This document shows, in pieces, positions 13,177 through 42,946 of a stretch of 64,000 nt of DNA. Source of the DNA: Variovorax ginsengisoli (GTDB taxonomy: Bacteria > Pseudomonadota > Gammaproteobacteria > Burkholderiales > Burkholderiaceae_C); NCBI RefSeq assembly GCF_030486595.1, contig NZ_JAUJZH010000006.1, forward strand, positions 62,001 to 126,000, given 5' to 3'. The notes under the pieces were generated by a model. That model did not search any database, was not told the DNA's origin, and worked only from the letters and a program-made list of their open reading frames with translations. How positions within the stretch are numbered: the stretch's first letter is position 1; each line of letters starts with the position of its first letter. The position numbers were made by a program, and so were the translations under genes.

Positions 13177-13195
13177 CCAAGCAGGGAGGCCAATC

Positions 13196-15921: not shown

Positions 15922-15934
15922 ACAGGAAGATCAA

Positions 15935-16723: not shown

Positions 16724-16790
16724 GCCAGCCCACCGAACCCCACGCGGCCGCCGAAGCCTTCGCAGTCGCATCACCCCAAAAGGAACATTC

Positions 16791-17741: not shown

Positions 17742-17752
17742 AGGAGACACCG

Positions 17753-18820
17753 ATGAGCCATCAACCCGAAAAGAAGATCTACATCTCCGATGTGACCCTA
17801 CGTGACGGCAGCCACGCCATTCGCCACCAGTACAGCGTGGAGCAAGCCAAGCAGATCGCCAAGGCGCTCGACGAGGCCAAGGTCGATTCCATCGAGGTCG
17901 CCCACGGCGACGGCCTGCAGGGCGGCAGTTTCAACTACGGCTTCGGCGCCCACACCGATGTCGAGTGGATCGAGGCGGTCGCCAGCGTGGTCAAGCACGC
18001 GAAGATTGCAACGCTACTGCTGCCTGGCATCGGAACGGTGCACGACCTCAAGGCGGCCTATGAAGCAGGAGCGCGCATCGTGCGCGTGGCGACGCATTGC
18101 ACCGAGGCCGACGTTTCGAGACAGCACATCGAGTATGCGCGCCATCTGGGCATGGAGGCCGTGGGATTTCTGATGATGAGTCACATGACCACGCCGCAAG
18201 CGCTGGCCGAGCAGGCCAAGCTGATGGAAAGCTATGGCGCGACCTGCTGCTACGTGGTGGACTCCGGCGGTGCGTTGAGCATGAACGACGTGCGCGACCG
18301 CTTCCGTTCATTCAAGGATGTGCTCAGACCGGAAACGCAGACGGGCATGCACGCGCACCACAACCTGAGCCTGGGCGTCGCCAATAGCATCGTCGCGGTT
18401 GAAGAAGGCTGTGACCGCGTCGACGCAAGCCTGGCGGGGATGGGCGCCGGGGCGGGCAACGCACCGCTGGAGGTGTTCATTGCCGCAGCCGCGCGCATGG
18501 GCTGGAACCACGGCACCGACCTCTACAAGCTCATGGACGCGGCCGACGACATCGTCCGCCCTTTGCAAGACCGTCCCGTTCGCGTGGATCGCGAGACGCT
18601 GGCGCTCGGCTATGCCGGGGTGTATTCGAGTTTCCTGCGCCATTCGGAAGCAGCCGCCGGCAAGTACGGTCTGAAAACGGTGGACATCCTGGTCGAGCTG
18701 GGCAAACGCCGCATGGTCGGTGGTCAGGAAGACATGATCGTTGACGTGGCCCTTGACCTGTTGAAGGGCGTCGAACACGAGCGCGTTCACCAGCCGCCCA
18801 CCATGAGCGAAGCCGCCTGA
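17753..18820 (+). CDS. mhpE: 4-hydroxy-2-oxovalerate aldolase
   Basis: The 355-residue protein has an HMGL-like TIM barrel with the metal/base motif [15 protein letters not shown] (residues 12-26), [11 protein letters not shown] with the metal-binding histidines, and a C-terminal DmpG-type communication domain (YSSFLRHSE and beyond). It cleaves 4-hydroxy-2-oxovalerate to pyruvate and acetaldehyde and passes acetaldehyde to MhpF. AAGGAGA precedes the ATG. Confidence 0.95.
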
Positions 18821-18858
18821 GTCCCTTTTCCCGAAATCAACACATCCGAGACCGAGTC

Positions 18859-19728
18859 ATGTCCACCAACAACGCTCCCATCACCGAATCCGACACAAGC
18901 CGCTTCGTCCGCATCAAGGAAGGCGACCTCGACCTACAACTGCACTGCAACGATGCCGGTAGCGGCGCCGAGACTGTGGTGATGCTGCACGGCTCGGGCC
19001 CCGGCGCAAGCGGCTGGGCCAATTTCAACCGCAACGTCGAGCCGTTCGTGGCCGCCGGCTACCGCGTCGTCCTGATGGACTGTCCGGGCTGGAGCAAGAG
19101 CGACCCAGTAGTCAGCACCGGCTCGCGTTCCGACCTCAATGCACGGGCGCTCAAGGGCCTGATGGACGCCATTGGCCTCGACAAGGTGCATATCGTCGGC
19201 AACTCGATGGGTGGGCACAGCGCGGTTGCCTTCGCGCTGGCCAACCCCGAACGCGTGGGCAAGCTGGTGCTGATGGGTGGCGGTACCGGGGGGCTCAGCC
19301 CGTTCGTGCCGATGCCCACCGAGGGCATCAAGCTGATTGGCGCCCTGTACCGCGATCCGACGATCGAGAACCTCAAGCGCATGATGAACGTGTTTGTCTA
19401 CGACACGAGCAACCTCACCGAAGAGCTTTTCCAGGCGCGCCTGGAAAACATGCTCAGCCGCCGCGATCACCTCGAGAACTTCGTCAAGAGCACCGAGGCG
19501 AACCCGAAACAGTTTCCCGATGTAGGGCACCGACTCGGCGAGATCGCGGCTCCGACGCTGTTGGTCTGGGGGCGCGACGACCGCTTCGTTCCGCTGGACA
19601 TCGGCCTGCGGCTGGTGACCGGCCTGCAGAAGGCCGACCTGCACGTGTTCAGCCGCTGCGGCCACTGGGCGCAGTGGGAGCACGCCGACAAGTTCAATCG
19701 CATGGTGCTGGACTTCCTGGCGCGCTGA
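18859..19728 (+). CDS. mhpC: Meta-cleavage product hydrolase, alpha/beta fold
   Basis: The 289-residue hydrolase has [16 protein letters not shown] (oxyanion region), the nucleophile elbow GNSMGG, the acid in WGRDDRFVP, and the catalytic His in CGHWAQWEH. These are typical of MhpC/BphD, which hydrolyse the C-C bond of the ring-opened product, giving 2-hydroxypenta-2,4-dienoate and a carboxylic acid. The released acid depends on the substrate of the unusual hydroxylase, so it cannot be named with certainty. Confidence 0.92.
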
Positions 19729-19846
19729 GCTAATCCGGGCGCTGATCTTTCCTTGAACGCCTCGCTCGATGCGCGGCGATTGGACACCCGCGTCCGGAGG
19801 TCTGTGCGAATCGAAAGGAGCCACTGGCTCGTCAAGCGATCCCCCC

Positions 19847-19874
19847 GGCCGGGCGTGGAAGTCCGGCCATTTTT
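19847..19874 (+). terminator. Possible weak terminator after mhpC
   Basis: The arms GGCCGG (19847-19852) and CCGGCC (19863-19868) flank a 10-base loop and are followed by ATTTTT. The loop is long and the T run short, so partial termination or attenuation between mhpC and the two downstream genes is the most I would claim. Confidence 0.35.
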
Positions 19875-19896
19875 CCCTAGTTCAACGGAGACTTCC

Positions 19897-21009
19897 ATGA
19901 CCAAGATGATGAATGCTGCACGTCTGCACAAGATCGGTGAACCCTTCCAGGTTGACACGATCCCGGTACCCGAAGTTCGGTCCACCGACGTGCTTGTCGA
20001 AGTGAAAGCCGCGGGCGTCGTGCCTAACCTGCGCAATGTGGTCACCAGCTATCCGAAGTGGTTTCCCTTCCTGCCATTGCCTGCTTTGCCCGCAATCTAC
20101 GGCCTCGACTCGGCCGGCGTGGTGACGCAGGTGGGCAGCCAAGTCCGCGCAGACATCAAGCCCGGCGACCGCGTCTACGTGAATCCGGGGCTATCGTGCG
20201 GAAGCTGCCTCGCATGCCGGCGCGGCGATCACATCAACTGCACCTCCTACACGTTCCAGGGCTACTTCGGCTTTGGTCCGGGCTCGCAGCAGCTCTTCGA
20301 GGACTACCCATACGGAGGCTTCGGCCAGTACCTGACGGCACCCGCCGCCAACCTGGTGAAGCTGCCCGACAGCATCAGCTTCGAGCAAGGCGCTCGCTTT
20401 GGCTATCTGGGCACCGCTTACTCGGCACTGCGAAAGGCGCAGTTCTCCCCAGGTCAGACGGTGCTCATTGACGGCGCGACGGGCACACTGGGGTTGGGCG
20501 CGGTCATCCTTGCGCTGGCCATGGGCGCGGCCAAAATCTTCGCGACGGGGCGCAACACCACGCTGCTCGAAAAGTTGCAGCAACTGAATCCGCAGCGCAT
20601 CGTCCCGATCGCGCTCGGATCGCGGCCGACTTCCGAAATCGTGATGGAGGCGACCGGGGGTTTCGGTGTCGATGCGCTCATCGAGGCGCTGGGCCCCAAT
20701 GCTGCGGTGGCGACGGTGCTCGACTCGTTCAATGCTCTGCGCCGCGGAGGGAAGGCGATCAACATTGGCGGCGTTGCCGATCCCATCCCGCTGGAGCCGT
20801 TCCCCCTCATGTGCCTGCAGAAGTCCTACATCGGCTCGCTGTGGTTCACGAGCGCGGAAGGCGAGGACATGGCGGCGATGGCCCACGCGGGCACGCTCAA
20901 TCTCGGGGTGTTCGAGCACGAGCGCTTTCCGCTTGAGCGTGTCAATGAAGCGCTGGATGCGATCGACCAGCGCAGCGGCGGATTCACCAACGTCGTGATC
21001 ATGCATTGA
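19897..21009 (+). CDS. MDR-family alcohol-dehydrogenase-like protein lacking the catalytic zinc ligands
   Basis: The 370-residue protein has a GroES-like domain, the four-cysteine structural zinc lobe (CGSCLACRRGDHINC), and a Rossmann fold with GATGTLGLGAV. The usual catalytic zinc cysteine after the first beta strands is replaced (AAGVVPNLRN), and the GHE motif reads GLD. It probably binds NAD(P)H but may not be a classical zinc alcohol dehydrogenase. CGGAGA precedes the chosen ATG; the frame extends further upstream without family similarity. It may process a side product of the mhp pathway. Confidence 0.8.
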   Translation: MTKMMNAARLHKIGEPFQVDTIPVPEVRSTDVLVEVKAAGVVPNLRNVVTSYPKWFPFLPLPALPAIYGLDSAGVVTQVGSQVRADIKPGDRVYVNPGLSCGSCLACRRGDHINCTSYTFQGYFGFGPGSQQLFEDYPYGGFGQYLTAPAANLVKLPDSISFEQGARFGYLGTAYSALRKAQFSPGQTVLIDGATGTLGLGAVILALAMGAAKIFATGRNTTLLEKLQQLNPQRIVPIALGSRPTSEIVMEATGGFGVDALIEALGPNAAVATVLDSFNALRRGGKAINIGGVADPIPLEPFPLMCLQKSYIGSLWFTSAEGEDMAAMAHAGTLNLGVFEHERFPLERVNEALDAIDQRSGGFTNVVIMH

Positions 21010-26250: not shown

Positions 26251-26985
26251 TCAGGGCCGCGTCTTCCCAGCCACCAGCCGCATCCCCGGCATCAGCTCGG
26301 CCGCGAGCTCCGGCCGCTCGAGTGCGTAGTCAAGGTTCATGCGTGCGATCTCGACGTGCTCCTCGCCCAGCGCCTGCGCGCGCGAGCCCTGCCCGCGCTC
26401 GATCGCCTGCACCATCGCGTGGTGCGTGCGGTGGGCCTGCTTCATCCACTGGTGCCCCTCCTCCATCGACGACTGCATCGGCAGCATGGCGCTCGGCGAC
26501 GCGAAGGGCTGGCCGTCGAGCATGTCCATCACGCGCCGGAGCGCGACATTGCCGCAGCCCTGCATGATCAGCTGGTGGAAGCGGTCGTTCATCTGGACAT
26601 AGGCCGCGTAGTCGTCCAGGCCCATCTCGGGCTTGTTGACCGCCTTGTCGCCCTCGTCGAGGCAGTCATGCAGGTCGCGCAGCAACTGGCGCGAGGCACC
26701 ATCCTCGGCCAGCAGGCGGGCCGCGAAGCCTTCGATCACCCCGCGCACGCGGATCGCGTCGGCGATCTCCTGAGACGTGAAGCGGCGCATCTGGTAGCCG
26801 CCGCTCGGCGACTGCTCGATCAGGCCCTCGTGCTCCAGGCTGGTGAGCGCCAGCCGCACGGGCGTGCGCGAGGCGCCGAGCTTCTCCGCCAGCGGGATCT
26901 CGGCCAGCCGCTCGCCGGGCACGAATTCGCCCTTGAGGATCAGGTCGCGAAGTTGAACCAGCACACGGTTTTGTTGGGAGTCCAT
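26251..26985 (-). CDS. GntR-family (FCD) regulator divergent from the Rieske/glutamyl operon
   Basis: The 244-residue protein has an N-terminal winged helix (PLAEKLGASRTPVRLALTSLEHEGLI, about residues 30-57) and a C-terminal FCD helical domain (about 75-220) with the metal-ligand-type histidines in NDRFHQLIMQGC and RTHHAMVQAI. FCD regulators usually repress adjacent catabolic operons and release DNA on binding a carboxylate or amino-acid-like ligand. It is transcribed away from the Rieske operon, and the 288-bp gap contains two TGCAT-rich dyads that are good operator candidates. Confidence 0.85.
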   Translation of the reverse strand: MDSQQNRVLVQLRDLILKGEFVPGERLAEIPLAEKLGASRTPVRLALTSLEHEGLIEQSPSGGYQMRRFTSQEIADAIRVRGVIEGFAARLLAEDGASRQLLRDLHDCLDEGDKAVNKPEMGLDDYAAYVQMNDRFHQLIMQGCGNVALRRVMDMLDGQPFASPSAMLPMQSSMEEGHQWMKQAHRTHHAMVQAIERGQGSRAQALGEEHVEIARMNLDYALERPELAAELMPGMRLVAGKTRP

Positions 26986-27273: not shown

Positions 27274-28599
27274 ATGATCAGTGCAGAACAGAATGATTTC
27301 ATCACCCGGGTCGGCCGGGCCACCCCCGCCGGCACGCTGTTGCGCCGCTACTGGCAGCCAGTGGCGCTGGCCGACGAACTCGCCGGTCCGCGCCCGGTCA
27401 AGGCGGTACAGCTGATGGGCCAGCACTTCGTCCTGTTCCGCGACGAGCAGGGCCAGCTGGGCATGCTCGACCGCGACTGTCCGCACCGCGGCGCCGACCT
27501 GGCTTTCGGCCGCCTCGAGCACGGCGGCCTGCGCTGCCCCTTCCATGGCTGGCTGTTCGACGCCAAGGGCAACTGCCTCGAAACCCCCGCCGAGCCCGTG
27601 GGCAGCAAGCTCTGCACCCGCATCAAGCAGGCCGCCTATCCGGTGGTCGAGCGCGCCGGCACGGTGTTCGCCTACATCGGCGACGGCGAGCCGCCCGCGT
27701 TCCCCGATTTCGACTGTTTCGTGGCGCCCGACTCGCACACCTTCGCCTTCAAGGGCCTGTTCGAATGCAACTGGCTGCAGGCGCTCGAGGTCGGCATCGA
27801 CCCGGCGCATGCCTCGTACCTGCACCGCTTCTTCGAAGATGCCGACACCTCGGAGAGCTATGGCAAGCAGTTCCGCGGCGCCTCGGCCGACTCCGACATG
27901 CCGATCACCCAGGTGCTGCGCGAGTACGACCGCCCCGACATCAGCGTCGAGCCGACCGACTACGGCATGCGGCTGACCGCACTGCGCCAGCTGTCCGAAA
28001 CCCAGACCCATGTGCGGGTGACCAACGTGGTGTTCCCGCAGGCCTTCGTGATCCCGATGAGCGCCGAGATGACGATCTCGCAGTGGCACGTGCCGGTCGA
28101 CGACACGCACTGCTACTGGTATGCGATCTTCACCAGCTTCACCGGCCCGGTCGACAAGCAGCAGATGCGCGACCAGCGCCTGAAGCTCTACGAGCTGCCC
28201 GACTACACCTCGCGCAAGAACAAGCGCAACAACTACGGCTACAGCATCGACGAGCAGCTGAGCCAGACCTACACCGGCATGGGCGACGACATCAACGTGC
28301 ACGACCAGTGGGCGGTCGAGTCGCAGGGCCCGATCCAGGACCGCACGCGCGAGCACCTGGGCAGCACCGACAAGGGCATCATCACCTACCGCCGGATGCT
28401 GGTGCGGGCCATCGAGAGCACGCAGGCCGGCGAAACGGCGCCGATGCTGATCGACGCCGCGCAGGCCAGCGCGCTCACCGGGCCACCGTCGATCGACGGC
28501 ATCGGCGAAGCCGGCAACACCGACGGCTACTGGCAGAGCGCCGACCGCGAACGCCGCCTCAAGTCGGACTGGGCCTCGGCCCGTCTGGCCGCAGCCTGA
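27274..28599 (+). CDS. Rieske non-heme iron oxygenase, large (alpha) subunit
   Basis: The 441-residue protein has a Rieske [2Fe-2S] domain (Cys69-x-His71 ... Cys88-x2-His91) and a catalytic domain with the mononuclear-iron motif Asp176-x2-His179-x4-His184 (GIDPAHASYLH). Length and layout resemble the phthalate 4,5-dioxygenase/VanA group, which works as alpha-only trimers; no beta subunit gene is present. A ferredoxin and a ferredoxin reductase are encoded downstream in the same operon. I chose the ATG at 27274 because GGAG precedes it; an ATG at 27262 is also possible. The glutamine-synthetase-like and amidotransferase neighbours suggest the substrate is a gamma-glutamyl amide of an amine. 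Confidence 0.88.
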   Translation: MISAEQNDFITRVGRATPAGTLLRRYWQPVALADELAGPRPVKAVQLMGQHFVLFRDEQGQLGMLDRDCPHRGADLAFGRLEHGGLRCPFHGWLFDAKGNCLETPAEPVGSKLCTRIKQAAYPVVERAGTVFAYIGDGEPPAFPDFDCFVAPDSHTFAFKGLFECNWLQALEVGIDPAHASYLHRFFEDADTSESYGKQFRGASADSDMPITQVLREYDRPDISVEPTDYGMRLTALRQLSETQTHVRVTNVVFPQAFVIPMSAEMTISQWHVPVDDTHCYWYAIFTSFTGPVDKQQMRDQRLKLYELPDYTSRKNKRNNYGYSIDEQLSQTYTGMGDDINVHDQWAVESQGPIQDRTREHLGSTDKGIITYRRMLVRAIESTQAGETAPMLIDAAQASALTGPPSIDGIGEAGNTDGYWQSADRERRLKSDWASARLAAA

Positions 28600-28612
28600 G
28601 CACGCGCACGCC

Positions 28613-30052
28613 ATGAGCTCCTTTGTAGACCGCCACGGCCTCTGGTCCGACGACCAGCAGAAGCAGGCCCAGGAACTGGTGCGCCGCATCGACGCCGGCG
28701 AAGTCGATGTCGTGCGCTTCGCCTGGCCCGACCAGCACGGCTTGCTGCGCGGCAAGACCCTGGTCGCCAGCGAAGCCCGCGCCGCGCTGTGGGACGGCGT
28801 CAACCTCACCTCCACCCTGCTCGCCAAGGACACCTCGCACAAGACCGTGTTCCCGGTGTTCGCGGCCGGCGGCGGCTTCGCCATCGAAGGCTTCCAGGGC
28901 GGCGCCGACTTCACGGTCGTGGCCGACCCCGCCACCTTCAAGGTGCTGCCCTGGGCGCCGCGCTCGGGCTGGGTCCTGTGCGATGCGTATATGGCCGACG
29001 GCAGGCCCTGCCCCTATGCCACGCGACAGATCCTGCAGCGCGCGGTGAAGCAGCTCGACGCACTCGGCATGGACTTCATCGCCGGCCTCGAGGTCGAGTT
29101 CCACGTCTTCAAGCTCGAAGATCCGCGCATGGGCCTGGCCGATTCGGGCCAGCCCGGCGAGCCGCCGCGGGTGTCGCTGCTGTCGCACGGCCACCAGTAC
29201 CTGACCGAGCTGCGCTACGACCGGGTCGACGCCGTGATGGAGCTGCTGCGCTCGCAGCTGGTCGCGCTCGGCCTGCCGCTGCGCTCGCTCGAGATCGAGT
29301 TCGGCCCGAGCCAGTTCGAGCTGACCTTCGGCCCGACCGCCGGCGTGCTGCCGGCCGACACCATGGTGCTGCTGCGCAGCGCCATCAAGCAGATCTGCCA
29401 GCGCGCCGGCTACCACGCGACCTTCATGTGCCGGCCGAAGATTCCGAACGTGATGTCCAGCGGCTGGCACCTGCACCAGTCGCTGCGCCGCAAGAGCGAC
29501 GGGGTCAACGCCTTCATGCCGGCCGAGCCGGGACAGGACCTGAGCGAGATCGGCCTGCACTACCTCGGCGGCCTGAAGCAGCATGCCTGCGGCGCGGCGG
29601 CCCTGGCCAGCCCGACCATCAACGGCTACCGCCGCTTTCGGCCCTTCTCGCTGGCGCCGGACCGTGCCATCTGGGCCCGCGACAACCGCGGCGCGATGCT
29701 GCGCGTGCTGGGCGGCGCCGGGCAGAACGCGACCCGGATCGAGAACCGGGTCGGCGAGCCGACGGCCAACCCCTACCTCTACCTCGCGTCGCAGCTGTTC
29801 TCGGGCCTGGATGGCATGCGCAGCAAGACCGACCCCGGCCCGTCGGCCGACGCGCCCTACGAAACGCCGGCCGAGCAGCTGCCGCGCTCGCTCGGCGATG
29901 CGCTCGCCTGCCTGCGCGGCGACGAGATGCTCAACGCCCAGATGGGCAAGGCCTTCGTCGACTACCTCTGCCACATCAAGGAAGCGGAGATCGCCCGCTT
30001 CAACCTCGAAGTCAGCGAGTGGGAACACCGCGAGTACTTCGACATGTTCTGA
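28613..30052 (+). CDS. Glutamine-synthetase-like gamma-glutamyl-amine ligase
   Basis: The 479-residue protein carries the GS catalytic core: LEVEFHVFKLED (metal Glu), SLEIEFGPSQFELTF, the ATP/ammonia-site SGWHLHQSL (His286), NGYRRFRPFSLAP, and RIENRVGEPTANPYLY (Glu377). The N-terminal GS-beta-grasp region is present. Sequence style is that of PuuA/IpuC/AtdA1-type enzymes that ligate glutamate to amines other than ammonia, not of housekeeping GlnA. In this operon it would activate or protect an imported amine as its gamma-glutamyl amide before oxygenation. The amine is unknown. Confidence 0.82.
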   Translation: MSSFVDRHGLWSDDQQKQAQELVRRIDAGEVDVVRFAWPDQHGLLRGKTLVASEARAALWDGVNLTSTLLAKDTSHKTVFPVFAAGGGFAIEGFQGGADFTVVADPATFKVLPWAPRSGWVLCDAYMADGRPCPYATRQILQRAVKQLDALGMDFIAGLEVEFHVFKLEDPRMGLADSGQPGEPPRVSLLSHGHQYLTELRYDRVDAVMELLRSQLVALGLPLRSLEIEFGPSQFELTFGPTAGVLPADTMVLLRSAIKQICQRAGYHATFMCRPKIPNVMSSGWHLHQSLRRKSDGVNAFMPAEPGQDLSEIGLHYLGGLKQHACGAAALASPTINGYRRFRPFSLAPDRAIWARDNRGAMLRVLGGAGQNATRIENRVGEPTANPYLYLASQLFSGLDGMRSKTDPGPSADAPYETPAEQLPRSLGDALACLRGDEMLNAQMGKAFVDYLCHIKEAEIARFNLEVSEWEHREYFDMF

Positions 30053-30063
30053 CGCTGCCCGAC

Positions 30064-30387
30064 ATGCCCACGATCCACTACATCCTGAAAGACGGCAGCA
30101 GCCGCAGCGTCGACGCCAAGCCCGGCTCCAGCGTGATGGAGAACGCCATCCGCGGCAACGTGCGCGGCATCGACGCCGAATGCGGCGGCTCCTGCTCCTG
30201 TGCCACCTGCCACGTCTATGTCGACGAGGCCTTCACCGACCGCCTGCCGCCGGCCGACGAGATGGAAAGCGAGCTGCTCGATGGCGTCGCCTCCGAGCGC
30301 CGCCCGGGCAGCCGCCTGAGCTGCCAGCTCACGGTGACCGCCGAGCTGGACGGCCTGACCGTGCGCATCCCCGAGACCCAGAGCTGA
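30064..30387 (+). CDS. Putidaredoxin-type [2Fe-2S] ferredoxin
   Basis: The 107-residue protein contains the plant/adrenodoxin-type cluster motif Cys-x5-Cys-x2-Cys (ECGGSCSCATCHVYV) and the fourth cysteine in LSCQL, with the LPPADEMESELLDG helix typical of putidaredoxin relatives. It passes electrons from the reductase encoded next to the Rieske oxygenase. It starts 11 bp after the ligase gene and its stop overlaps the reductase start (TGATG). Confidence 0.9.
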   Translation: MPTIHYILKDGSSRSVDAKPGSSVMENAIRGNVRGIDAECGGSCSCATCHVYVDEAFTDRLPPADEMESELLDGVASERRPGSRLSCQLTVTAELDGLTVRIPETQS

Positions 30388-31619
30388 TGGCCGCCGCCCA
30401 CCCCCTGGTGATCGTCGGCGCGTCCTATGCCGGCGTCCAGCTGGCCGCCAGCGCGCGCGAGCTCGGCTTCGAGGAGCGCATCGTCATCGTCGGCGACGAG
30501 GTCCACGCGCCCTACCAGCGCCCGCCCCTGTCCAAGGGCCTGCTGACCGGCAAGACCAGCGTCGACAACCTGGCTTTGCGCGGCCCCGATTTCTTCGCCC
30601 AGAACGCCATCGATCTGATGCTCGGCCGGCGTGCCACCGCGCTCGACCCCGGGGCGCGCAGCGTGCGGCTCGACGATGGCGCCGTGCTCGACTACGGCTG
30701 GCTCGCGCTGGCGACCGGTGCACGCTGCCGGCCCTTCGCGCTCCCGGGCTCGACGCTCGAAGGCGTGCTCGACCTGCGCACGCTCGACGATGCGCTGCGG
30801 ATCGCCGACGCCGCCGGGCGCACCGAGCGCGCCTGCGTGATCGGCGGCGGCTTCATCGGCCTGGAGGTGGCGTCGGCGCTGCGCGCGCGCGGCGCCGAGG
30901 TCACCGTGGTCGAGGCCCAGCCGCACCTGCTGGCACGCGCATTTCCGCAGCTGATGTCGTCCTATGTCGAGAACGCGCATCGCCGCCGCGGCGTCGCGCT
31001 GCTGACCGGCCGCGGCGTGCGGGCGCTGCACGGCGCACAGGGCCGCGTGGCCGCGGTCGAGCTCGACGACGGCACCCGCATCGATTGCGACCTGGTCGTC
31101 CTCGGCATCGGCGTGCTGCCCAACGCCGAGCTGGCGCAGCAGGCCGGCATCGCGGTCGACAACGGCATCGTCGTCGACATGCTGGGCCGCACGTCGGCGC
31201 CGCGGGTGCTGGCCGCGGGCGACGTCGCCAGCATGGCGCTGCCGCCCGCACCCGGCGTGCCGGCGCGCATGCGGCTCGAGTCGATCCAGTCGGCCAACGA
31301 CGGCGCCCGCGCGCTGGCCTCCCTGGTGGTCGGCCGCGAGGCGCCCTGCACCGCGGTGCCCTGGTTCTGGAGCGACCAGTTCGACCTCAAGCTGCAGATG
31401 ACCGGCCTGGCCGCGCCCGGCGACGAAGTCGTGCTGCGCGGCGACATGGCCAGCGATCGCTTCAGCGTGTTCTACCTGCGGCAAGGCACACTCGTGGCCG
31501 CCCACTCGGTGAACAAGCCGGCCGAGCACATGCAAAGCCGCAAGCTGATCGGCGCCCGTGCCCGCCTCGGTGCCGACCAGCTCGCCGACCCCTCTTTCGA
31601 CCTCAAGACGGTCGCCTGA
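30387..31619 (+). CDS. FAD-dependent ferredoxin reductase
   Basis: The 410-residue protein of the putidaredoxin/BphA4-reductase group has an N-terminal FAD motif (VIVGASYAGVQLA), PYQRPPLSKGLLTG, the NADH motif VIGGGFIGLEVASALRARG, and the FAD-binding RVLAAGDVAS. The C-terminal domain has PWFWSDQFDLKLQMTG, typical of oxygenase-coupled ferredoxin reductases. It takes electrons from NADH to the upstream ferredoxin. Separate ferredoxin and reductase genes distinguish this system from phthalate dioxygenases, which use a fused reductase. Confidence 0.9.
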   Translation: MAAAHPLVIVGASYAGVQLAASARELGFEERIVIVGDEVHAPYQRPPLSKGLLTGKTSVDNLALRGPDFFAQNAIDLMLGRRATALDPGARSVRLDDGAVLDYGWLALATGARCRPFALPGSTLEGVLDLRTLDDALRIADAAGRTERACVIGGGFIGLEVASALRARGAEVTVVEAQPHLLARAFPQLMSSYVENAHRRRGVALLTGRGVRALHGAQGRVAAVELDDGTRIDCDLVVLGIGVLPNAELAQQAGIAVDNGIVVDMLGRTSAPRVLAAGDVASMALPPAPGVPARMRLESIQSANDGARALASLVVGREAPCTAVPWFWSDQFDLKLQMTGLAAPGDEVVLRGDMASDRFSVFYLRQGTLVAAHSVNKPAEHMQSRKLIGARARLGADQLADPSFDLKTVA

Positions 31620-31668
31620 TCACCCCTTGCCCGCCGGCTCGCCGGCTTCCCTGAACGGAGCTTCCCCG

Positions 31669-32862
31669 ATGATGATGAACAAGAGAAACGCGCTCGCCAC
31701 CCTGACCCTGGCCTGCCTCGGCGCCTTCGGTGCCATGTCCGCGCAGGCGGCCGACGAGCCGCTTCGCATCGGCCTGATCGCGACCTACTCCGGCCCCTAT
31801 GCCGACTACGGCCGCCAGTTCGACGCCGGCGTCGCGCTCTACCTCAAGGAACACGGCGGCAAGATCGCCGGCCGCACGGTCGAGGTCATCAAGAAGGACA
31901 CCGCCGGCCCGGCGCCCGATGCCGCCAAGCGGATCGCCCAGGAGCTGGTGGTGCGCGACAAGGTGAGCGTGCTCACCGGCCTCGACTTCAGCCCCAACGC
32001 CTACGCGGTGGCGGCGATCGCCACCCAGGCCAAGATCCCGACCCTGGTGATGAACGCGGCCTCCTCCGCGATCACGGCCAGCTCGCCCTACGTGGCGCGC
32101 CTGTCGTTCACCGTGCAGCAGGTCACCGACCCGATGGCACGCTGGATGGTCAAGCAGGGCGTGAAGGAGGCCTATACCGTGGTGGCCGACTACGCCTCGG
32201 GCACCGACGCCGAGACCGCGTTCAAGAAGGCCTTCACGGCCCAGGGCGGCAAGGTGGTCGGCGAAGTCCGCACGCCGATGAACAACCCCGACTTCTCGGC
32301 CTACGTGCAGCGCATCAAGGACGCCAGGCCGCAGGCGGTGTTCTTCTTCTTTCCGTCGGGCGTGATGCCGCCGGCCTTCCTCAAGGTCTGGAAGGAGCGC
32401 GGCATGGAAGAAGCCGGCATCAAGCTCTACGCCACCGGCGAAGCCACCGACGACAGCTACCTCGACGCCACCGGCGACGTGGCGCTGGGCCTGGTCACGA
32501 GCCATCACTATTCGTACGCCCATGCGTCGCCGAAGAACCAGAAGTTCGTCAAGGACTTCGCCGCCGAGTTCGGCACCAAGCTGCGCCCGAGCTACTTCGC
32601 GGTCACGGCCTACGACACGATGGCCGCCATCGACCTGGCGCTCGCCAAGACCAAGGGCGAGCTCTCGGGCGACAAGTTCATGGACGCGCTCAAGGGGCTG
32701 AAGTTCGAGAGCCCGCGCGGCCCGATCGAGATCGACCCCGCCACCCGCGACATCGTGCAGACGGTCTACATCCGCAAGACCGAACGGGTCAAGGGCGAAC
32801 TGGTGAACGTCGAGTTCGACAAGTTCGAGCGCGTCAAGGACCCGGCCAAGGAAAGCCAGTAA
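31669..32862 (+). CDS. Branched-chain-type ABC transporter substrate-binding protein
   Basis: The 397-residue type I periplasmic binding protein has a Sec signal peptide (cleavage after MSAQAA) and the LivK-like opening LRIGLIATYSGPYADYGRQ, followed by the two-lobe Peripla_BP_6 pattern. ATG 31669 follows GGAG with suitable spacing. LivK-type proteins linked to catabolic operons often bind aromatic or amine compounds instead of leucine. Here it probably captures the amine or amide used by the operon. Confidence 0.85.
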   Translation: MMMNKRNALATLTLACLGAFGAMSAQAADEPLRIGLIATYSGPYADYGRQFDAGVALYLKEHGGKIAGRTVEVIKKDTAGPAPDAAKRIAQELVVRDKVSVLTGLDFSPNAYAVAAIATQAKIPTLVMNAASSAITASSPYVARLSFTVQQVTDPMARWMVKQGVKEAYTVVADYASGTDAETAFKKAFTAQGGKVVGEVRTPMNNPDFSAYVQRIKDARPQAVFFFFPSGVMPPAFLKVWKERGMEEAGIKLYATGEATDDSYLDATGDVALGLVTSHHYSYAHASPKNQKFVKDFAAEFGTKLRPSYFAVTAYDTMAAIDLALAKTKGELSGDKFMDALKGLKFESPRGPIEIDPATRDIVQTVYIRKTERVKGELVNVEFDKFERVKDPAKESQ

Positions 32863-32899
32863 CCGGCACCAGCCGGCCGCCAGCAGCAACGGGAAATCC

Positions 32900-33760
32900 A
32901 TGGGAATCGTGATCTTCGACGGAGTGGCCTACGGCATGCTCCTGTTCCTCATCGGGGTGGGCCTGTCCATCACGATGGGCCTCATGAACTTCGTCAACCT
33001 CGCGCACGGCACGTTCGCGATGGTCGGCGGCTACGCCGCAAGTGTTCTGATGAACCACTTCGGCGTCGGCTTCTTCCCGTCGCTGGCGGCGGCCTTCATC
33101 GCCGCCGCGCTGGTCGGCGCGGTGCTCGAGTTCTCCTTCTACCGCCGGCTCTACCGCGCCCATCCGCTCGACCAGGTGCTGCTGTCGATCGGCATCGTGT
33201 TCGTCTCGGTCGCCGTGTTCACGTATTTCTTCGGCCCGACCATGCAGGCCTTCCAGCTGCCGCCGCTGCTGGACGGCCGGGTGTCGCTGCTCGGGCTGGA
33301 GGTGGGACGCTACCGCCTGTTCCTGATCCTCTGCGGCGTGGCGGTGCTGGCGGCCCTGCTGGGGGTGCTCGGCAAGACCCGCTACGGCGCGATGGTGCGG
33401 GCCGCGGTCGACAACCAGCGCGTCGCCGGCGGCACCGGCATCCACGTGCAGCGCCTGTTCTTCCTGACCTTCTCGCTGGGCTGCGGGCTGGCGGGCCTCG
33501 GCGGCGCGCTGAGCCTCGGCATGCTCGGGCTCGAGCCCTCGTTCCCGCTCAAGTACCTCGTGTACTTCCTGATCGTCGTCTGCGTCGGCGGCGCCGGCAC
33601 CATCACCGGCCCCTTCGTGGCCGCGCTGCTGGTCGGCATCGTCGATGTCGCAGGCAAGTACTACCTGCCGGAAGCCGGCGCATTCCTCATCTACGTCGTC
33701 ATGATCATCATGTTGCTAGCACGGCCCAACGGCATCATCCCGCGCAAGGGCCTGGCATGA
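32900..33760 (+). CDS. Branched-chain-type ABC transporter permease, LivH-like
   Basis: The 286-residue inner-membrane protein has about eight helices and the LivH pattern: GLSITMGLMNFVNLAHG near the N-terminus, and GGAGTITGPFVAALLVGIVD near the C-terminus. It forms the membrane channel with the LivM-like protein whose start overlaps its stop by 4 bp (ATGA). Confidence 0.9.
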   Translation: MGIVIFDGVAYGMLLFLIGVGLSITMGLMNFVNLAHGTFAMVGGYAASVLMNHFGVGFFPSLAAAFIAAALVGAVLEFSFYRRLYRAHPLDQVLLSIGIVFVSVAVFTYFFGPTMQAFQLPPLLDGRVSLLGLEVGRYRLFLILCGVAVLAALLGVLGKTRYGAMVRAAVDNQRVAGGTGIHVQRLFFLTFSLGCGLAGLGGALSLGMLGLEPSFPLKYLVYFLIVVCVGGAGTITGPFVAALLVGIVDVAGKYYLPEAGAFLIYVVMIIMLLARPNGIIPRKGLA

Positions 33761-34719
33761 AGCCGCTCGCACTGTCCCCCGCCCGCCTGCGAGGCATCGA
33801 GGTCTTCTTCTGGCTCGCACTGGCTTCGAGCTTCTTCCTGCTGCCCGACAAGCTCACGCTGATGAGCCAGATCGTGATCTTCGGCCTGTTCGCGGTCTCG
33901 CTGGACATGGCGCTCGGCTACGCCGGCATCCTCACGGTGGGCCATGCGGCCTTCTTCGGCGCCGGCGCCTATGCCGCCGGGCTGCTGGCCAGGCACGGCT
34001 GGAGCGAGCCCTTCAGCGGCCTGCTGTTCGCCCTGCTGCTGTGCGTCGCGCTCGGCTATGTGCTGAGCTACCTGGTGGTGCGCGGCGCCGACCTCACGCG
34101 GCTCATGATCACCATCGGCGTGTGCATGCTGCTGGCCGAGCTGGCCAACCGGCTGTCGTCGATCACCGGCGGCACCGACGGCCTGCAGGGCGTGGTGATC
34201 GCGCCGGTGCTCGGGCTGTTCGAGTTCGACCTGTACGGCAAGACCGCTTTCGCCTATGCGTACGGCGTGGTGCTGGTGGTCTTTCTCGGCGTGCGGCTGG
34301 TGCTGCGCTCGCCGTTCGGGCTCACGCTGCGTGGCATCCACGACAGCCGCAAGCGCATGCTGGCGATCGGCTCGCCGGTCGAGGCCCGCCTGCGCCTGGC
34401 CTATGCGCTGTCGGCCGGCGTGGCCGGCATCGCCGGCGCGCTGCTGGCCCAGACCACGCAGTTCGTCGGCATCGAATCGATCGGCTTCAACCGCTCGGCC
34501 GAGGTGCTGATCATCCTCGTGCTCGGCGGCACCGGCCGGCTGTACGGCGGCATGATCGGCGCGATCGTCTACATGCTGGTGCACGACTGGTTCGCCGATC
34601 TCAATCCGCAGTACTGGATGTTCTGGCTTGGCATCTTCCTGATCGCCGCCGTCATGCTGGGCCGCGGCGGGATCATGGGCGCGCTGTCTCGGCTGGTGAA
34701 GACCGGGAGGGCGTCATGA
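33757..34719 (+). CDS. Branched-chain-type ABC transporter permease, LivM-like
   Basis: The 320-residue membrane protein carries LDMALGYAGILTVGHAAFFGAGAYAAG, TGGTDGL, GIHDSRKRMLAIG (coupling-helix region contacting the ATPases) and GGTGRLYGGMIGA. It overlaps both neighbours by 4 bp, so the importer genes are translationally coupled. Confidence 0.9.
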   Translation: MKPLALSPARLRGIEVFFWLALASSFFLLPDKLTLMSQIVIFGLFAVSLDMALGYAGILTVGHAAFFGAGAYAAGLLARHGWSEPFSGLLFALLLCVALGYVLSYLVVRGADLTRLMITIGVCMLLAELANRLSSITGGTDGLQGVVIAPVLGLFEFDLYGKTAFAYAYGVVLVVFLGVRLVLRSPFGLTLRGIHDSRKRMLAIGSPVEARLRLAYALSAGVAGIAGALLAQTTQFVGIESIGFNRSAEVLIILVLGGTGRLYGGMIGAIVYMLVHDWFADLNPQYWMFWLGIFLIAAVMLGRGGIMGALSRLVKTGRAS

Positions 34720-35463
34720 GCGCCGTACTGCGCACGCGCGGCCTCGGCATCTCCTTCGGCGCCTTCCGCGCGGTCGACGACGTCAACCTGACGCTCGAAC
34801 CCGGTGCCCGCCAGGCCCTGATCGGCCCCAACGGCGCCGGCAAGACGACACTGATCAACCTGCTGACGGGCGTCTTCAAGCCAACCCACGGAACGATCCA
34901 CATGGGCGAGCGCGAGCTCACCGCGCTCAGCGCCGACAAGCGCGCCCGCATGGGGCTGGCGCGCACCTTCCAGATCAACACGCTGTTCCCGAGCCTCACG
35001 CCGCTGCTGTCGGTGGTGCTCGCGATCAGCGAGCGCGACGGCCTGGGCGCCGTCTGGTGGCGCCCGCTCAAGCGCAACAAGGCGGCGTTCGACGAAGCGC
35101 ATGCGCTGCTCGGCCGACTCAAGCTCGACGCGCTGGCCGACGTGCCGGTGGCCGAACTCGCCTACGGCAAGCAGCGCCTGCTCGAGATTGCGCTCGCGAT
35201 GGCCGCCCGGCCCCGGATCCTGCTGCTCGACGAGCCCGCCGCCGGCGTGCCCGAGGACGAGAGCGGCGAACTCTTCGAAGCCATCGCCGAACTGCCGCAG
35301 GACATCAGCGTGCTGTTCATCGAACACGACATGAACCTCGTCTTCCGTTTCTCGCGCCGGATCTCGGTGCTGGTCGCCGGCCGGATCCTCACCGAGGGCA
35401 GCCCGGCGGAGATCGGCCGCGACCCGCGGGTGCGCGAGGTCTATCTCGGCCATGGAGCTGCGC

Positions 35464-35471
<8 letters not shown>
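34716..35471 (+). CDS. Branched-chain-type ABC transporter ATPase, LivG-like
   Basis: The 251-residue ATPase has Walker A GPNGAGKTT, the LivG-style signature AYGKQRLLEIALAMA in place of LSGGQ, Walker B ILLLDEPAAG, and switch region FIEHDMNLVF. It powers the importer with the LivF-like partner. Its 3' end overlaps the LivF-like gene by 8 bp. Confidence 0.92.
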
Positions 35472-36183
<712 letters not shown>

Positions 36184-36196
36184 GGGGTCGGCGCCG

Positions 36197-36919
36197 ATGA
36201 AGCCGATCGCGGTCTTCCAGCACACCGAGGTGGGGGCACCGGGCGCGGTGCTGCCGATCCTCGGGGCCCTGGGCCGCGAGGTGGAGATGGTGCGCATCGT
36301 CGACGGCCAGGCGGTCCCTGCGGACGCTTCGCGCTTCAGCGGCCTGGTCTTCATGGGCGGCTACATGGGCGCGCACGACCCGCTGCCTTGGATCGCACAG
36401 GAGCTTGCCCTGATCCGCGACGCCGATGCGCGCGGCATCCCGGTTGCCGGCCATTGCCTGGGAAGCCAGCTGGTGGCGCTCGCGCTGGGAGGCGAAGTCC
36501 ATCCGCACGACCGGCCCGAGATCGGCTGGTGCGAGATCACCGCGGAAGCCAGCGACACGGCGCGTGCGTGGTGGGGCGAGGAGCACGCGGGCAAGGTGCT
36601 TCAGACCTTCCAGTGGCACGCCGACACCTTCACGCCCCCGCCCGGCGCGGTCCCGCTGGCGCGCGGCGCCTGTTGCGCCAACCAGGCCTTCGTGCTGCGC
36701 GACCGGCATCTGCTGGTGCAGTCTCACCTCGAGATGACGCCTGCACTGGTCGAGCTGTCGATGGCGCGCAACGGCCAGCAGTTGGTTCGGCAGAACGCGC
36801 TCGCGAATCCGGCGGCGAGCGCCGGCGGCGACCTGCTGAACGATCTGCCGAAGCGCACGCAGGAAATGCACGCGTTGCTGGGGCGGCTCTATGCACGATG
36901 GGTGGTGGGCTGCGGGTGA
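36197..36919 (+). CDS. Class I glutamine amidotransferase-like gamma-glutamyl hydrolase
   Basis: The 240-residue single-domain protein has a class I GATase triad: Cys87 in GHCLGSQL, His177 and Glu179 in QSHLEMTP, plus the FQWHADTF segment. There is no fused synthase domain. In an operon with a GS-like ligase such proteins (PuuD, IpuF, AtdA2) hydrolyse or process gamma-glutamyl amides, returning glutamate and the product amine. Its position at the end of the Rieske/ligase/importer operon supports that role here. The exact substrate is inferred only. Confidence 0.8.
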   Translation: MKPIAVFQHTEVGAPGAVLPILGALGREVEMVRIVDGQAVPADASRFSGLVFMGGYMGAHDPLPWIAQELALIRDADARGIPVAGHCLGSQLVALALGGEVHPHDRPEIGWCEITAEASDTARAWWGEEHAGKVLQTFQWHADTFTPPPGAVPLARGACCANQAFVLRDRHLLVQSHLEMTPALVELSMARNGQQLVRQNALANPAASAGGDLLNDLPKRTQEMHALLGRLYARWVVGCG

Positions 36920-39794: not shown

Positions 39795-40637
39795 TCAGGG
39801 CAGCAGTTCGAACTTCAGGTCCGCCAGCGGCATCACCTTCTCCTCGCGCACCAGCTTGTATTCGGTGTTCGGGCCCAGCCACTTGGCCCAGAGGCGGTCG
39901 AGTTCGCCCGACTTCTCGAGCGCATACAGCGCGCCGTTCACCTTCGCCAGCAGCTGCGGCTCGTCCTTCTTCATGCCGATGCCGATCGGCTGCAGCACCA
40001 TCGGCTCCTTGATCATCTTGAGCGGCACGCCTTCGGTCTTCGACTGGTTGACCAGCTTGGTGATGGTCATGGTGTTGGCCACCATCCCCATCGACTTGTT
40101 CTGCTGCACCGCCATGAAGGCCGATCCGGTGTCCTGGAAGGTCACGGGCTCGGAGCCGTTCATCTTGATGGACAGCTCGGAGGTCGAACCCTTGGTCGAA
40201 CTCAGGCGCTTGCCCTTGAAGTCGGCCTTGGTGGTGCCGGGGTCCGAGGCCTTGACCGCGAGCATCTCCTTGGCGACGTAGTAGGGATCGCTGAACTGGA
40301 TCTGCTCGCCACGGCTCTTGGTGTAGGCCAGGTTGGCGATCGTCACGTCGACCCGGCCCAGCTTGACTTCAGGCACCCGCGCCTCCACCGACAGCGGCGT
40401 GACCTTGGCCGTCAAACCAAGCTCCTTGGCCAGCGCGTTGCACAGGTCGACGTCATGCCCGACCATCTCGCGCGTCTTCGGGTCCGGCGCGGCGAACGGC
40501 GGCACGTCGGCGAAGGTGCCGCATTTGAGTTCCTTGCGCGCGGCGATGTCGGCCCACTGGTCGGCATGCGCCAGCAGGGAGAGCGCGGACAGGCAGACGC
40601 CCAGGGCGCCGAGTTGAAGAGCGGTCGGTTTCGACAT
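39795..40637 (-). CDS. Polar-amino-acid ABC transporter substrate-binding protein
   Basis: The 280-residue family 3 solute-binding protein has a signal peptide (cleavage after LLAHA) and the typical opening ELKCGTFADVPPFAAPDPKT, then GHDVDLCNALAKELG and ANLAYTKSRGEQIQFSDPYY. The ATG at 40637 is chosen because AGGAGA precedes it. It is the last gene of the minus-strand operon beginning with the SDR. The pxp-like genes upstream suggest a lactam or glutamate-like ligand, but this is inference. Confidence 0.88.
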   Translation of the reverse strand: MSKPTALQLGALGVCLSALSLLAHADQWADIAARKELKCGTFADVPPFAAPDPKTREMVGHDVDLCNALAKELGLTAKVTPLSVEARVPEVKLGRVDVTIANLAYTKSRGEQIQFSDPYYVAKEMLAVKASDPGTTKADFKGKRLSSTKGSTSELSIKMNGSEPVTFQDTGSAFMAVQQNKSMGMVANTMTITKLVNQSKTEGVPLKMIKEPMVLQPIGIGMKKDEPQLLAKVNGALYALEKSGELDRLWAKWLGPNTEYKLVREEKVMPLADLKFELLP

Positions 40638-40674
40638 GGAGATCTCCTGAAGGGGTGAGAGGGCGGGGGAAGGG

Positions 40675-41409
<735 letters not shown>

Positions 41410-41485
41410 GGGGTCGTCCTGGAGGGGCGATGGGGGGTTCATGGTCTGTCTCCGTCGGTTTCTGTGGTGGGCCGTCTGCGCGGCC

Positions 41486-42241
41486 TCAGGGATGGGTGGC
41501 CACGGCGGGCGGCAGGTCGCTGGCGCCGGGGTCCTGGCGGACGGCGGTGCCGAGCCGCTTGAGGGCGATGCGGCGCTCCAGCCAGAGCGCCAGCCGGGTC
41601 AGGCTGAAGCAGACCACGTAGTAGGTCATCGCCAGGATGAAGAACACCTGGAAGGGCTTGGTCAGCAGCTGGTTGTTGATCTGGTTGGCGGCAAAGGTGA
41701 GCTCCTGGACATTGATCACGTAGCCCAGCGTGGTTTCCTTGATGGTCGAGATGAACTGGCTCAGCATGCTCGGCAGCATGTTGTAGAGCGCCTGCGGCAG
41801 GATCACGTAGAACATCGTCCCGAGGTGGCTGTGGCCGAGCGCGCGCGCCGCCTCGCTCTGCCCCTTGGGAAGGGACTGGATGCCCGCGCGCACCACCTCC
41901 GACAGGTAGGCGCCCTCGTAGATGACCAGCGTGCAGAGCATCGTCGTGAAGCCGGACACGTCGCGGCCGATCAGGATCGGCACCAGGAAATAGACCCACA
42001 GGATCACCATCAGCAGCGGCACGCCGCGCACGATGTAGACCAGCACCGTGGCGGGCACCCGCAGCAGCTTCCACGGCGACAGGCGCGCCAGCGCGAGCAG
42101 CACCGACAGCGGAAAGGCCAGCACGATGCCGAGCACCGACAGGATCAGGGTGGCGACGATCCCGCCCAGGGGCCCGTTCGGATACTGGCCCACCAGCAGC
42201 AGCAGCCAGTTGTCCCTGAGGATCTCGAAGATGCTGAACAT
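41486..42241 (-). CDS. Polar-amino-acid ABC transporter permease
   Basis: The 251-residue membrane protein of the His/Glu/Gln/Arg permease family has the [13 protein letters not shown] segment and the coupling-loop [22 protein letters not shown]. The C-terminal tail after the last helix is soluble. It lies 3 bp after the partner permease. Confidence 0.9.
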
Positions 42242-42244
42242 GGG

Positions 42245-42946
42245 CTACCTCGCACCGACGATTCGATAGCGCCGCGCCACCCAGGCGCCGACGGCCATGA
42301 TGAGCAGCGAGAACGCCAGGTACAGCACGGTGGCGGCGCTGTAGGCCTCGAAGGTGCGGAAGCTCTGGCTCTCGATTTCCTTCACCGCATGCGTCAGCTC
42401 GGCGACGCCGATCGCCATCGCCAGGCTGCTGTTCTTGAACAGCGACACGCTGTGGTTCACCAGCGCCGGCACCGCGTTGCGGATCGCCTGCGGCAGCATC
42501 ACGTGACGCATCGATCCGATGTAGCCGTGGCCCAGCGCCCGGGCGGCCTCGGCCTGCCCGGCGGGAATGGAGCGCAGGCCGGAGCGCATGTCCTCGCTGA
42601 AATACGCCGCCTGGCACAGGCCCAGCGCGACGATCGACAGCAGGGTCTCGGCGTTGTGCTCCGACAGCCAGGCCTGCAGGGCGTCGGGCAGCAGGCTGAA
42701 GATGCCGAAGTACCAGAGCATCAGCTGCACCAGGGTCGGCACGTTGCGGTGGTAGGACACATAGGCCGCCACGGCTCGCTCGGCGATCGGCTGGCCCGTC
42801 AGGCGCACCACCAGCAGCACGATCGCGATGGCCATGGCCAGCAGCCAGGAGCCGGCGGCGATCTGCAAGGTGGCCTCGATGCCGTGCAGCAGCATCAGGC
42901 CGAACTCGGGCTTGAGCAGGATCGCCAGGAGATCGAATTCCTTCAT
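42245..42946 (-). CDS. Polar-amino-acid ABC transporter permease
   Basis: The 233-residue membrane protein of the same family has the YHRNVPTLVQLMLWYFG segment and coupling-loop [22 protein letters not shown]. It resembles GltJ-like partners. The importer therefore has two different permeases, as glutamate/aspartate systems do. Confidence 0.9.
   Translation of the reverse strand: MKEFDLLAILLKPEFGLMLLHGIEATLQIAAGSWLLAMAIAIVLLVVRLTGQPIAERAVAAYVSYHRNVPTLVQLMLWYFGIFSLLPDALQAWLSEHNAETLLSIVALGLCQAAYFSEDMRSGLRSIPAGQAEAARALGHGYIGSMRHVMLPQAIRNAVPALVNHSVSLFKNSSLAMAIGVAELTHAVKEIESQSFRTFEAYSAATVLYLAFSLLIMAVGAWVARRYRIVGAR

What the first reader, a model, noticed from the sequence alone, without database searches (positions are those of the whole stretch)
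27274..36919. Candidate gamma-glutamyl-protected amine oxidation operon with its own importer
Seen: one operon encodes a Rieske oxygenase, a GS-like ligase, a ferredoxin, a ferredoxin reductase, a five-gene LivK/H/M/G/F-type importer and a class I amidotransferase-like hydrolase with its triad. Known: isopropylamine (Ipu) and aniline (Atd/Tdn) pathways use a GS-like enzyme to make a gamma-glutamyl amide, an oxygenase to act on it, and a GATase-type hydrolase; PuuA/PuuD do the same for putrescine without an oxygenase. Inference: an imported amine is glutamylated, hydroxylated and released. The alpha-only oxygenase with a separate ferredoxin and reductase differs from the aniline dioxygenase layout, so this may be a distinct version of the strategy.
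Basis: partly seen in the sequence, partly recalled or inferred. Interest (0 to 1): 0.85.

Follow-up and report, generated by a model that had tools for sequence, protein, structure and literature searches.

The report
Operon for degrading 4-aminobenzoate-like amines
A ten-gene bacterial operon appears to import an acidic aromatic amine, most likely 4-aminobenzoate, tag it with glutamate and oxidise it to a common food intermediate; it looks like a relative of an already described 4-aminobenzenesulfonate pathway rather than a new strategy.

Summary
The ten genes are present, on one strand, in one tight operon at 27274-36919. The gamma-glutamyl reading survives, but it is neither new nor about amines in general.

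The constant core is the oxygenase-ligase pair: a ligase match lies beside the oxygenase in 79 of the 80 nearest named relatives, and in 0 of 11 loci of distant oxygenase paralogues. The same gene set is named in the sad operon of Hydrogenophaga intermedia (sadA oxygenase, sadB glutamine synthetase, sadC ferredoxin), described for 4-aminobenzenesulfonate.

Four lines point to a para-acidic aniline, best 4-aminobenzoate:
- the importer's binding protein is 40-49% identical to proteins crystallised with 4-hydroxybenzoate or vanillate;
- the oxygenase is nearest to phthalate and isophthalate dioxygenases;
- an invariant lysine (K72) replaces the ring-contacting Phe75 of the 1-naphthylamine ligase;
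- some relatives sit beside 4-hydroxylaminobenzoate lyase or protocatechuate genes.

New member of a known kind. No assay was possible; SadA/SadB sequences were out of reach; the 4-aminobenzoate 'pab' operon is recalled, not read.

The parts
26251..26985 (-). GntR/FCD-family regulator, divergent from the operon
   Evidence: Pfam GntR + FCD; a relative is on the locus in 40 of 80 named loci and on JS666 plasmid
27274..28599 (+). Single-subunit (alpha-type) Rieske oxygenase, SadA-like; C69/H71/C88/H91 Rieske motif and D176/H179/H184 iron-site motif invariant in 39 of 39 aligned rows, window included (ligand roles by family knowledge)
28613..30052 (+). Glutamine-synthetase-like ligase, SadB-like; invariant K72 aligned with NpaA1 Phe75
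30064..30387 (+). Fer2-family [2Fe-2S] ferredoxin, SadC-like
   Evidence: Fer2; found on 38 of 80 named loci
30387..31619 (+). FAD ferredoxin reductase (AndAa/HcaD/BphA4 type)
   Evidence: found on 28 of 80 named loci, 3 of them weak matches far from the pair
31669..32862 (+). Periplasmic substrate-binding protein; nearest solved relatives bind 4-hydroxybenzoate / vanillate
32900..33760 (+). LivH-type permease
   Evidence: BPD_transp_2
33757..34719 (+). LivM-type permease
   Evidence: BPD_transp_2
34716..35471 (+). LivG-type ATPase
   Evidence: ABC_tran + BCA_ABC_TP_C
35464..36183 (+). LivF-type ATPase (start may be 35452)
   Evidence: ABC_tran
36197..36919 (+). Class I glutamine-amidotransferase-like hydrolase, probable gamma-glutamyl anilide editing hydrolase
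   Evidence: GATase; near 3m3p, 148 bits; only 32% over 145 aa to the hydrolase of the pLME1 aniline-type cluster

Best explanation
The operon is a sad/pab-type aromatic-amine dioxygenase system with its own importer. LivKHMGF brings in a para-substituted benzoate, most likely 4-aminobenzoate. The GS-like ligase uses ATP and glutamate to make gamma-glutamyl-4-carboxyanilide, with K72 of the neighbouring subunit facing the para-acid group. The single-subunit Rieske oxygenase, fed with electrons through the FAD reductase and [2Fe-2S] ferredoxin, dioxygenates the ring at the carbon that bears the amide and its neighbour, so the amide nitrogen leaves and protocatechuate forms. The GATase-like protein hydrolyses surplus gamma-glutamyl anilide back to the amine. 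Shown by sequence or model: gene set, operon, families, pairing, ligase clade, binding-protein kinship, K72 conservation. Inferred: substrate, K72 contact, reaction site, hydrolase role.
Against: No assay or expression datum was found for this strain. Hydrogenophaga SadA/SadB sequences could not be fetched, so direct orthology to the tested operon is untested; no Hydrogenophaga is among the 80 nearest relatives kept. PnbB was not found on 74 of 80 relatives' loci nor in the operon; genome-level co-occurrence in the order is 3 of 19 against 5 of 281 (P about 0.01), or 2 of 18 against 5 of 281 without the own genome (P about 0.06; assumes both calls drew the same 300 genomes). A pca set near the cluster was seen in 1 of 102 loci and one plasmid. 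One Streptomyces ligase (L177) with no RO found beside it also has Lys at position 72. One unnamed contig (L055) has ferredoxin right after the RO and no ligase on its 5.1 kb. The K72 contact rests on an alignment to NpaA1 docking, not on a structure.
Confidence: 0.74

Rival explanations
1. The main substrate is 4-aminobenzenesulfonate (sulfanilate), as in the sad operon, with 4-sulfocatechol as product.
For: The only experimental assignment that I read for this gene set is 4-aminobenzenesulfonate (PMC5632844); SA1, a sulfanilate strain, has the pair with a maleylacetate reductase gene about 2 kb away.
Against: The binding protein is nearest to benzoate-derivative binders; the pair is found in many genera; PMC5632844 itself suspects a natural substrate resembling the sulfonate. 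Sulfocatechol genes were not sought in this genome.
Confidence: 0.1
2. Another acidic aminoarene is the substrate (3-aminobenzoate, 4-aminosalicylate, 4-aminophenylacetate or a folate-breakdown product), with the same glutamylation-dioxygenation chemistry.
For: Importer and oxygenase kinship only say 'aromatic acid'; vanillate is bound by one close relative of the binding protein.
Against: The sad operon and the PnbB and pca neighbourhoods point at the para position.
Confidence: 0.1
3. One reading: a general, perhaps aliphatic, amine is glutamylated, hydroxylated without loss of nitrogen, and released by the GATase-like hydrolase, as in the isopropylamine and putrescine pathways.
For: The operon has a class I GATase-like gene; the Ipu pathway is described with that logic (PMC6776027 passages).
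Against: Hydrolase found on only 16 of 80 relatives' loci; ligase far from PuuA (28%); Ipu is described with a cytochrome P450, not a Rieske oxygenase; importer of aromatic-acid type.
Confidence: 0.04

Closest known systems
sad operon of Hydrogenophaga intermedia PBC (4-aminobenzenesulfonate 3,4-dioxygenase; PMC5632844, parts 1-2 of 4 and passages read)
   Same: Oxygenase, glutamine synthetase and ferredoxin genes, lettered in the window's order (sadA, sadB, sadC); conserved across a genus
   Different: Window adds a LivKHMGF importer and GATase-like hydrolase in the operon; SadA/B sequences and the true sad gene order were not compared; sulfocatechol genes not sought here
pab operon for 4-aminobenzoate of Paraburkholderia terrae KU-15 (recalled; not found by searches)
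   Same: As recalled: PabA gamma-glutamyl-4-carboxyanilide synthetase, PabB1-B3 multicomponent dioxygenase to protocatechuate, PabC hydrolase
   Different: Gene order and any importer of the pab operon not known to me; sequences not compared
Aniline / 1-naphthylamine dioxygenase (AtdA, TdnQ, NpaA; PMC11335346, sections 10, 12, 13 and passages read)
   Same: GS-like ligase of the same broad group, GATase-like hydrolase, Rieske oxygenase on the gamma-glutamyl anilide
   Different: Oxygenase there is alpha plus beta with Ring_hydroxyl_A domain; window oxygenase is single with LigXa_C; only 24-26% partial identity; ligase outside the window's clade, Phe instead of Lys at the ring site in NpaA1 and the pLME1 ligase
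Ipu isopropylamine pathway (PMC6776027, passages read)
   Same: Glutamylation, oxygenation, amidotransferase-like hydrolase
   Different: Cytochrome P450 oxygenase; aliphatic amine
Puu putrescine pathway of E. coli
   Same: gamma-glutamyl ligase and class I hydrolase family
   Different: PuuA only 28% identical to the ligase; no Rieske oxygenase in the puu region

Membership tests
sad-type operon (4-aminobenzenesulfonate dioxygenase) | Rieske-type oxygenase, glutamine synthetase and ferredoxin genes together | tested here: met
   Window RO-GS-Fdx-FdR; components from PMC5632844. The text read gives names and accessions, not a gene map, and not SadD's function
sad-type operon (4-aminobenzenesulfonate dioxygenase) | Sequence orthology to H. 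intermedia SadA/SadB | not tested
   No Hydrogenophaga chromosome came up among the loci fetched; proxy SA1: RO 65%, GS 57%
sad-type operon (4-aminobenzenesulfonate dioxygenase) | Acts on 4-aminobenzenesulfonate | not testable with these tools
   Needs an assay
4-aminobenzoate (pab) operon | Glutamylates 4-aminobenzoate and oxidises the anilide to protocatechuate | not testable with these tools
   Indirect support only; the operon paper is recalled
Aniline dioxygenase (AtdA/TdnQ type) | Two-subunit alpha plus beta Rieske oxygenase with Ring_hydroxyl_A alpha subunit | tested here: not met
   Window RO has Rieske + LigXa_C and no beta gene in the operon; NpaA- and pLME1-type RO have Ring_hydroxyl_A
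Aniline dioxygenase (AtdA/TdnQ type) | Ligase groups with those of NpaA1/pLME1 | tested here: not met
   Window ligase lies in a clade of 40 without them, support 100/98
Organic-amine glutamyl synthetases (GoaS) | Nearer to characterised organic-amine ligases than to GlnA, with the extra N-terminal loop | tested here: met
   418 bits to NpaA1 against 194 bits or less for other solved GS; loop T66-T78 aligns with NpaA1 A69-M81, within the V68-M81 loop
GlnA (glutamate-ammonia ligase) | Passes the GlnA model cut-off | tested here: not met
   221 bits, cut-off 429
PuuA | Passes the gamma-glutamylputrescine synthetase cut-off | tested here: not met
   218 bits, cut-off 650
Ipu pathway | Cytochrome P450 oxygenase beside the ligase | tested here: not met
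   Oxygenase in the operon is Rieske type; Ipu P450 from PMC6776027
Benzoate-derivative ABC binding proteins (4ey3/4evs group) | Closest structural and sequence kinship to 4-hydroxybenzoate binders | tested here: met

The most novel reading that the evidence does not exclude
One inter-subunit residue marks the substrate class of glutamyl-anilide ligases: Lys72 selects anionic anilines such as 4-aminobenzoate in the single clade that travels with the single-subunit phthalate-dioxygenase-like oxygenase, while Phe (or another residue) there goes with aniline-type amines in ligases that travel with two-subunit oxygenases. The window's importer-linked operon would then be the natural 4-aminobenzoate form behind the xenobiotic 4-aminobenzenesulfonate pathway.
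Probability: 0.27. Interest if true: 0.5.

Novelty: new member of a known kind. Interest (0 to 1): 0.3.

Why it matters
PMC5632844 noted that the sad operon is conserved in Hydrogenophaga strains with presumably little exposure to xenobiotics and guessed at an unknown natural substrate. The importer kinship, the conserved lysine and the neighbouring genes make 4-aminobenzoate, a folate precursor, the concrete and cheap-to-test candidate. It also suggests a one-residue rule for telling acid-aniline ligases from aniline ligases in genome annotation, where most plasmid records opened here call them 'glutamine synthetase family protein'.

Tried and rejected
Chance or misread ORFs: rejected, ten-gene order recurs on JS666 plasmid. 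Auxin-degradation (iad) operon: considered because of Rieske genes in Variovorax; the two iad papers listed hold the term 'glutamine synthetase' 0 times (listing only, not read), dropped. Aniline dioxygenase, Ipu and Puu membership: tested, not met (see membership rows).

First ligase tree put the aniline ligases inside the oxygenase-linked clade, which would have suggested that aniline ligases descend from it; long branches met there. With three further alpha-beta partners and other ligases added, and PuuA left out, the 40 oxygenase-linked rows separated with support 100/98, so the nesting was dropped. The tree used 34 of the 97 locus ligases plus the window and 16 references. In that call I labelled six ligases as partners of alpha-beta oxygenases; its tblastn lines, and for the beta subunit, show that L179 (Rhizobium sp. 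BG4) is a seventh. L179 has Phe at position 72 but branches on the other side of the split from the six, just outside the 40. So the alpha-beta partners are not shown to be one clade, and an earlier wording of mine ('two sister lineages') was withdrawn; the odds of the novel case went from 0.30 to 0.27 for this. In one search the test without the own genome used a wrong table; one search gives the right value (P about 0.06).

Own codon-model gene calls were poor for several loci and were replaced by tblastn and profile searches. In one search the LigA queries came from wrong reading frames; their hits (27-30%) were ignored. TIGR02422 (protocatechuate 3,4-dioxygenase beta) gave only sub-cut-off matches in the own genome. 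Codes 4ey3 etc. were not found in relevant papers. The carboxylate role of Arg244 (and Arg207) of phthalate dioxygenase is recalled; its paper is not held; window Arg248 aligns with Arg244 (my count along the printed alignment) and is invariant in 39 of 39 rows. No claim is made that anything is not in print; the pab operon paper was not found by searches, yet I recall it.

In one search a ligase match was counted at E 1e-20 or better; with a 40% coverage filter gave 78 of 80, because L093 keeps only ligase residues 1-121. Hydrolase, ferredoxin, reductase and importer counts are for the stretch fetched, up to 10 kb each side, and are lower bounds since some contigs end early. Searches show 16 of 18 order-level loci with the ligase; in L056 the oxygenase itself runs off the contig, in L055 ferredoxin follows the oxygenase directly and no ligase is on the 5.1 kb contig. 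The 11 control loci hold at most 1.5 kb on each side. The 9 annotated plasmid loci are L139-L142, L161, L162, L169, L170, L171; in five of them (L161, L162, L169, L170, L171) absence of PnbB rests on an incomplete gene table; two more (L167, L168) bear no annotation and were not searched.
Full report
What is there. Ten genes run head to tail on the + strand from 27274 to 36919: Rieske oxygenase, GS-like ligase, [2Fe-2S] ferredoxin, FAD ferredoxin reductase, LivK/H/M/G/F importer, class I GATase-like hydrolase, with a divergent GntR/FCD regulator at 26251-26985. The window lies in a 7.8 Mb genome in which a Gln-synt_C search found two genes, GlnA on another contig and this one. The nearest named relatives are nine Variovorax genomes (RO 87-90%) and Polaromonas sp. 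JS666 plasmid 1 (RO 90%), which has the complete ten-gene operon.

How constant it is. Orthologous oxygenases, besides the window's own, were found in 18 of 300 genomes of the order (51-70% identity). The genome-contig scan returned the best 80 of 551 relatives, from beta- and alphaproteobacteria by their titles. A ligase match lies beside the oxygenase in 79 of 80; the 80th contig ends there (78 of 80 under a stricter filter). Among 11 loci of oxygenase paralogues at 32-37% identity, none has a ligase in the at most 1.5 kb held on each side. The rest is exchangeable: ferredoxin on 38 of 80 loci, reductase 28 (3 of them weak and distant), LivK-type binding protein 47, any hydrolase 16 (10 GATase type, 6 C26 type). 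So the unit is oxygenase plus ligase; importer and hydrolase are fittings that vary.

What the ligase is. It fails the GlnA (221 against 429 bits) and PuuA (218 against 650) cut-offs. Its best solved relative is NpaA1, the 1-naphthylamine ligase (8wwu, 418 bits; next best 194) (that 8wwu is NpaA1 follows from its match to the JS3066 plasmid gene, and recall). Identity is 42% to NpaA1, 49% to the ligase of plasmid pLME1, 28% to PuuA and to own GlnA (the names TdnQ/DcaQ for the pLME1 gene are recalled). In a careful tree of 51 rows the 40 ligases paired with this single-subunit oxygenase form one clade (100/98); ligases beside alpha-beta oxygenases fall outside it. There are seven of these: six labelled and L179, whose alpha and beta genes showed; L179 branches apart from the six, so the seven are not shown to be one clade. 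Window K72 is Lys in 97 of 97 locus ligases and 40 of 40 rows, but Phe, Phe, Val, Phe, Phe, His and Phe in the seven. K72 aligns with NpaA1 Phe75. The eLife paper (PMC11335346, sections 10, 12, 13 and passages read) reports that Phe75 of the neighbouring subunit lines the aromatic-ring site and that F75A almost loses aniline activity. A lysine there suits an acid group on the ring. This is inference from alignment. One exception on the other side: a Streptomyces ligase with no oxygenase found nearby (L177) also has Lys.

Neighbourhoods. 4-hydroxylaminobenzoate lyase (PnbB, PF16155), an enzyme of 4-nitrobenzoate breakdown to protocatechuate (pathway recalled), lies within 10 kb of the pair in 6 of 80 named loci (Xenophilus, Cupriavidus, four Paraburkholderia/Caballeronia) and 5-11 kb away in 3 of 9 annotated plasmid loci opened (Cupriavidus pinatubonensis, Methylobacterium nodulans, Caballeronia insecticola). 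PnbB is otherwise rare: 8 of 300 genomes of the order, own included. A rough chance model with assumed copy number and genome size makes 6 of 80 very unlikely, and still 2e-7 if only three independent lineages are counted. At genome level the link is modest: 3 of 19 with the oxygenase against 5 of 281 without, P about 0.01, or 0.06 without the own genome. In Palleronia LCG004 the GS lies within 5 kb and the RO within 13 kb of pcaB, D, G, H and C; among 102 loci only L046 showed a pca set. The own genome has 3 PnbB genes and 3 LigA-family matches, none of them in the window's operon.

Comparison with the known. PMC5632844 (parts 1-2 of 4 read, plus passages; [quoted passage not shown] It is conserved in Hydrogenophaga, and the authors suspect a natural substrate. 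Novosphingobium resinovorum SA1, listed with sulfanilic acid as degraded substrate (PMC6167471 passage), carries the related pair on pSA3 with a maleylacetate reductase gene about 2 kb off. From recall, the pab operon of Paraburkholderia terrae KU-15 does the same for 4-aminobenzoate through gamma-glutamyl-4-carboxyanilide; three searches did not find that paper in the library.

Mechanism. Import; glutamylation; dioxygenation across the amide-bearing carbon, expelling the nitrogen and giving protocatechuate; editing by the hydrolase. The last point follows from the hydrolase's patchy presence and from the aniline system, where the GATase-like enzyme returns gamma-glutamylanilide to aniline (PMC11335346).

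Verdict. Real, conserved, and correctly placed in the gamma-glutamyl strategy, but a member of an already described kind. The new content is the probable natural substrate, the aromatic-acid importer, and the K72 rule.

Noticed in passing
window 12076-21009 (+): TctC-type binding protein, FAD aromatic-ring hydroxylase, HMGL/DmpG-type aldolase and a zinc-type dehydrogenase: looks like a second aromatic (meta-cleavage) operon in the same window.
   Followed up: no
window 445-4725 (+): One 1426-aa frame holds both a glycosyltransferase family 2 domain (about 397-696) and an outer-membrane efflux protein domain (about 1224-1406); an odd fusion in one open frame.
   Followed up: no
L093 7373-7946: In the endosymbiont MAG Candidatus Protistobacter heckmanni the ligase match covers residues 1-121 only and overlaps the ferredoxin match that follows: the ligase gene looks eroded or the contig misassembled.
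   Followed up: partly
L161 10569-10910; L171 14769-15107; L106, L107, L113, L116, L123: A small 5-carboxymethyl-2-hydroxymuconate isomerase-like gene recurs near the pair in alphaproteobacteria.
   Followed up: partly
L166 22823-23734 and 40768-41598: On the SA1 plasmid a glutaminase gene lies beside the ferredoxin and reductase genes and a dihydropteroate synthase (folP) gene about 8 kb from the oxygenase; both would fit handling of a folate-precursor analogue.
   Followed up: no
L059-L067: Nine Variovorax relatives have oxygenase, ligase and ferredoxin, and 8 of 9 the importer, but no reductase or hydrolase of these families was found in the fetched stretch.
   Followed up: no
L173 4995-8189: A Streptomyces tendae ligase of this group sits with a carbon-nitrogen hydrolase and a GATase, with no oxygenase annotated or found by tblastn in the 11 kb: a different gamma-glutamyl module.
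   Followed up: no
window 39795-42946 (-): Family 3 solute-binding protein with neighbouring frames on the same strand that may be an amino acid ABC importer, unrelated to the operon.
   Followed up: no
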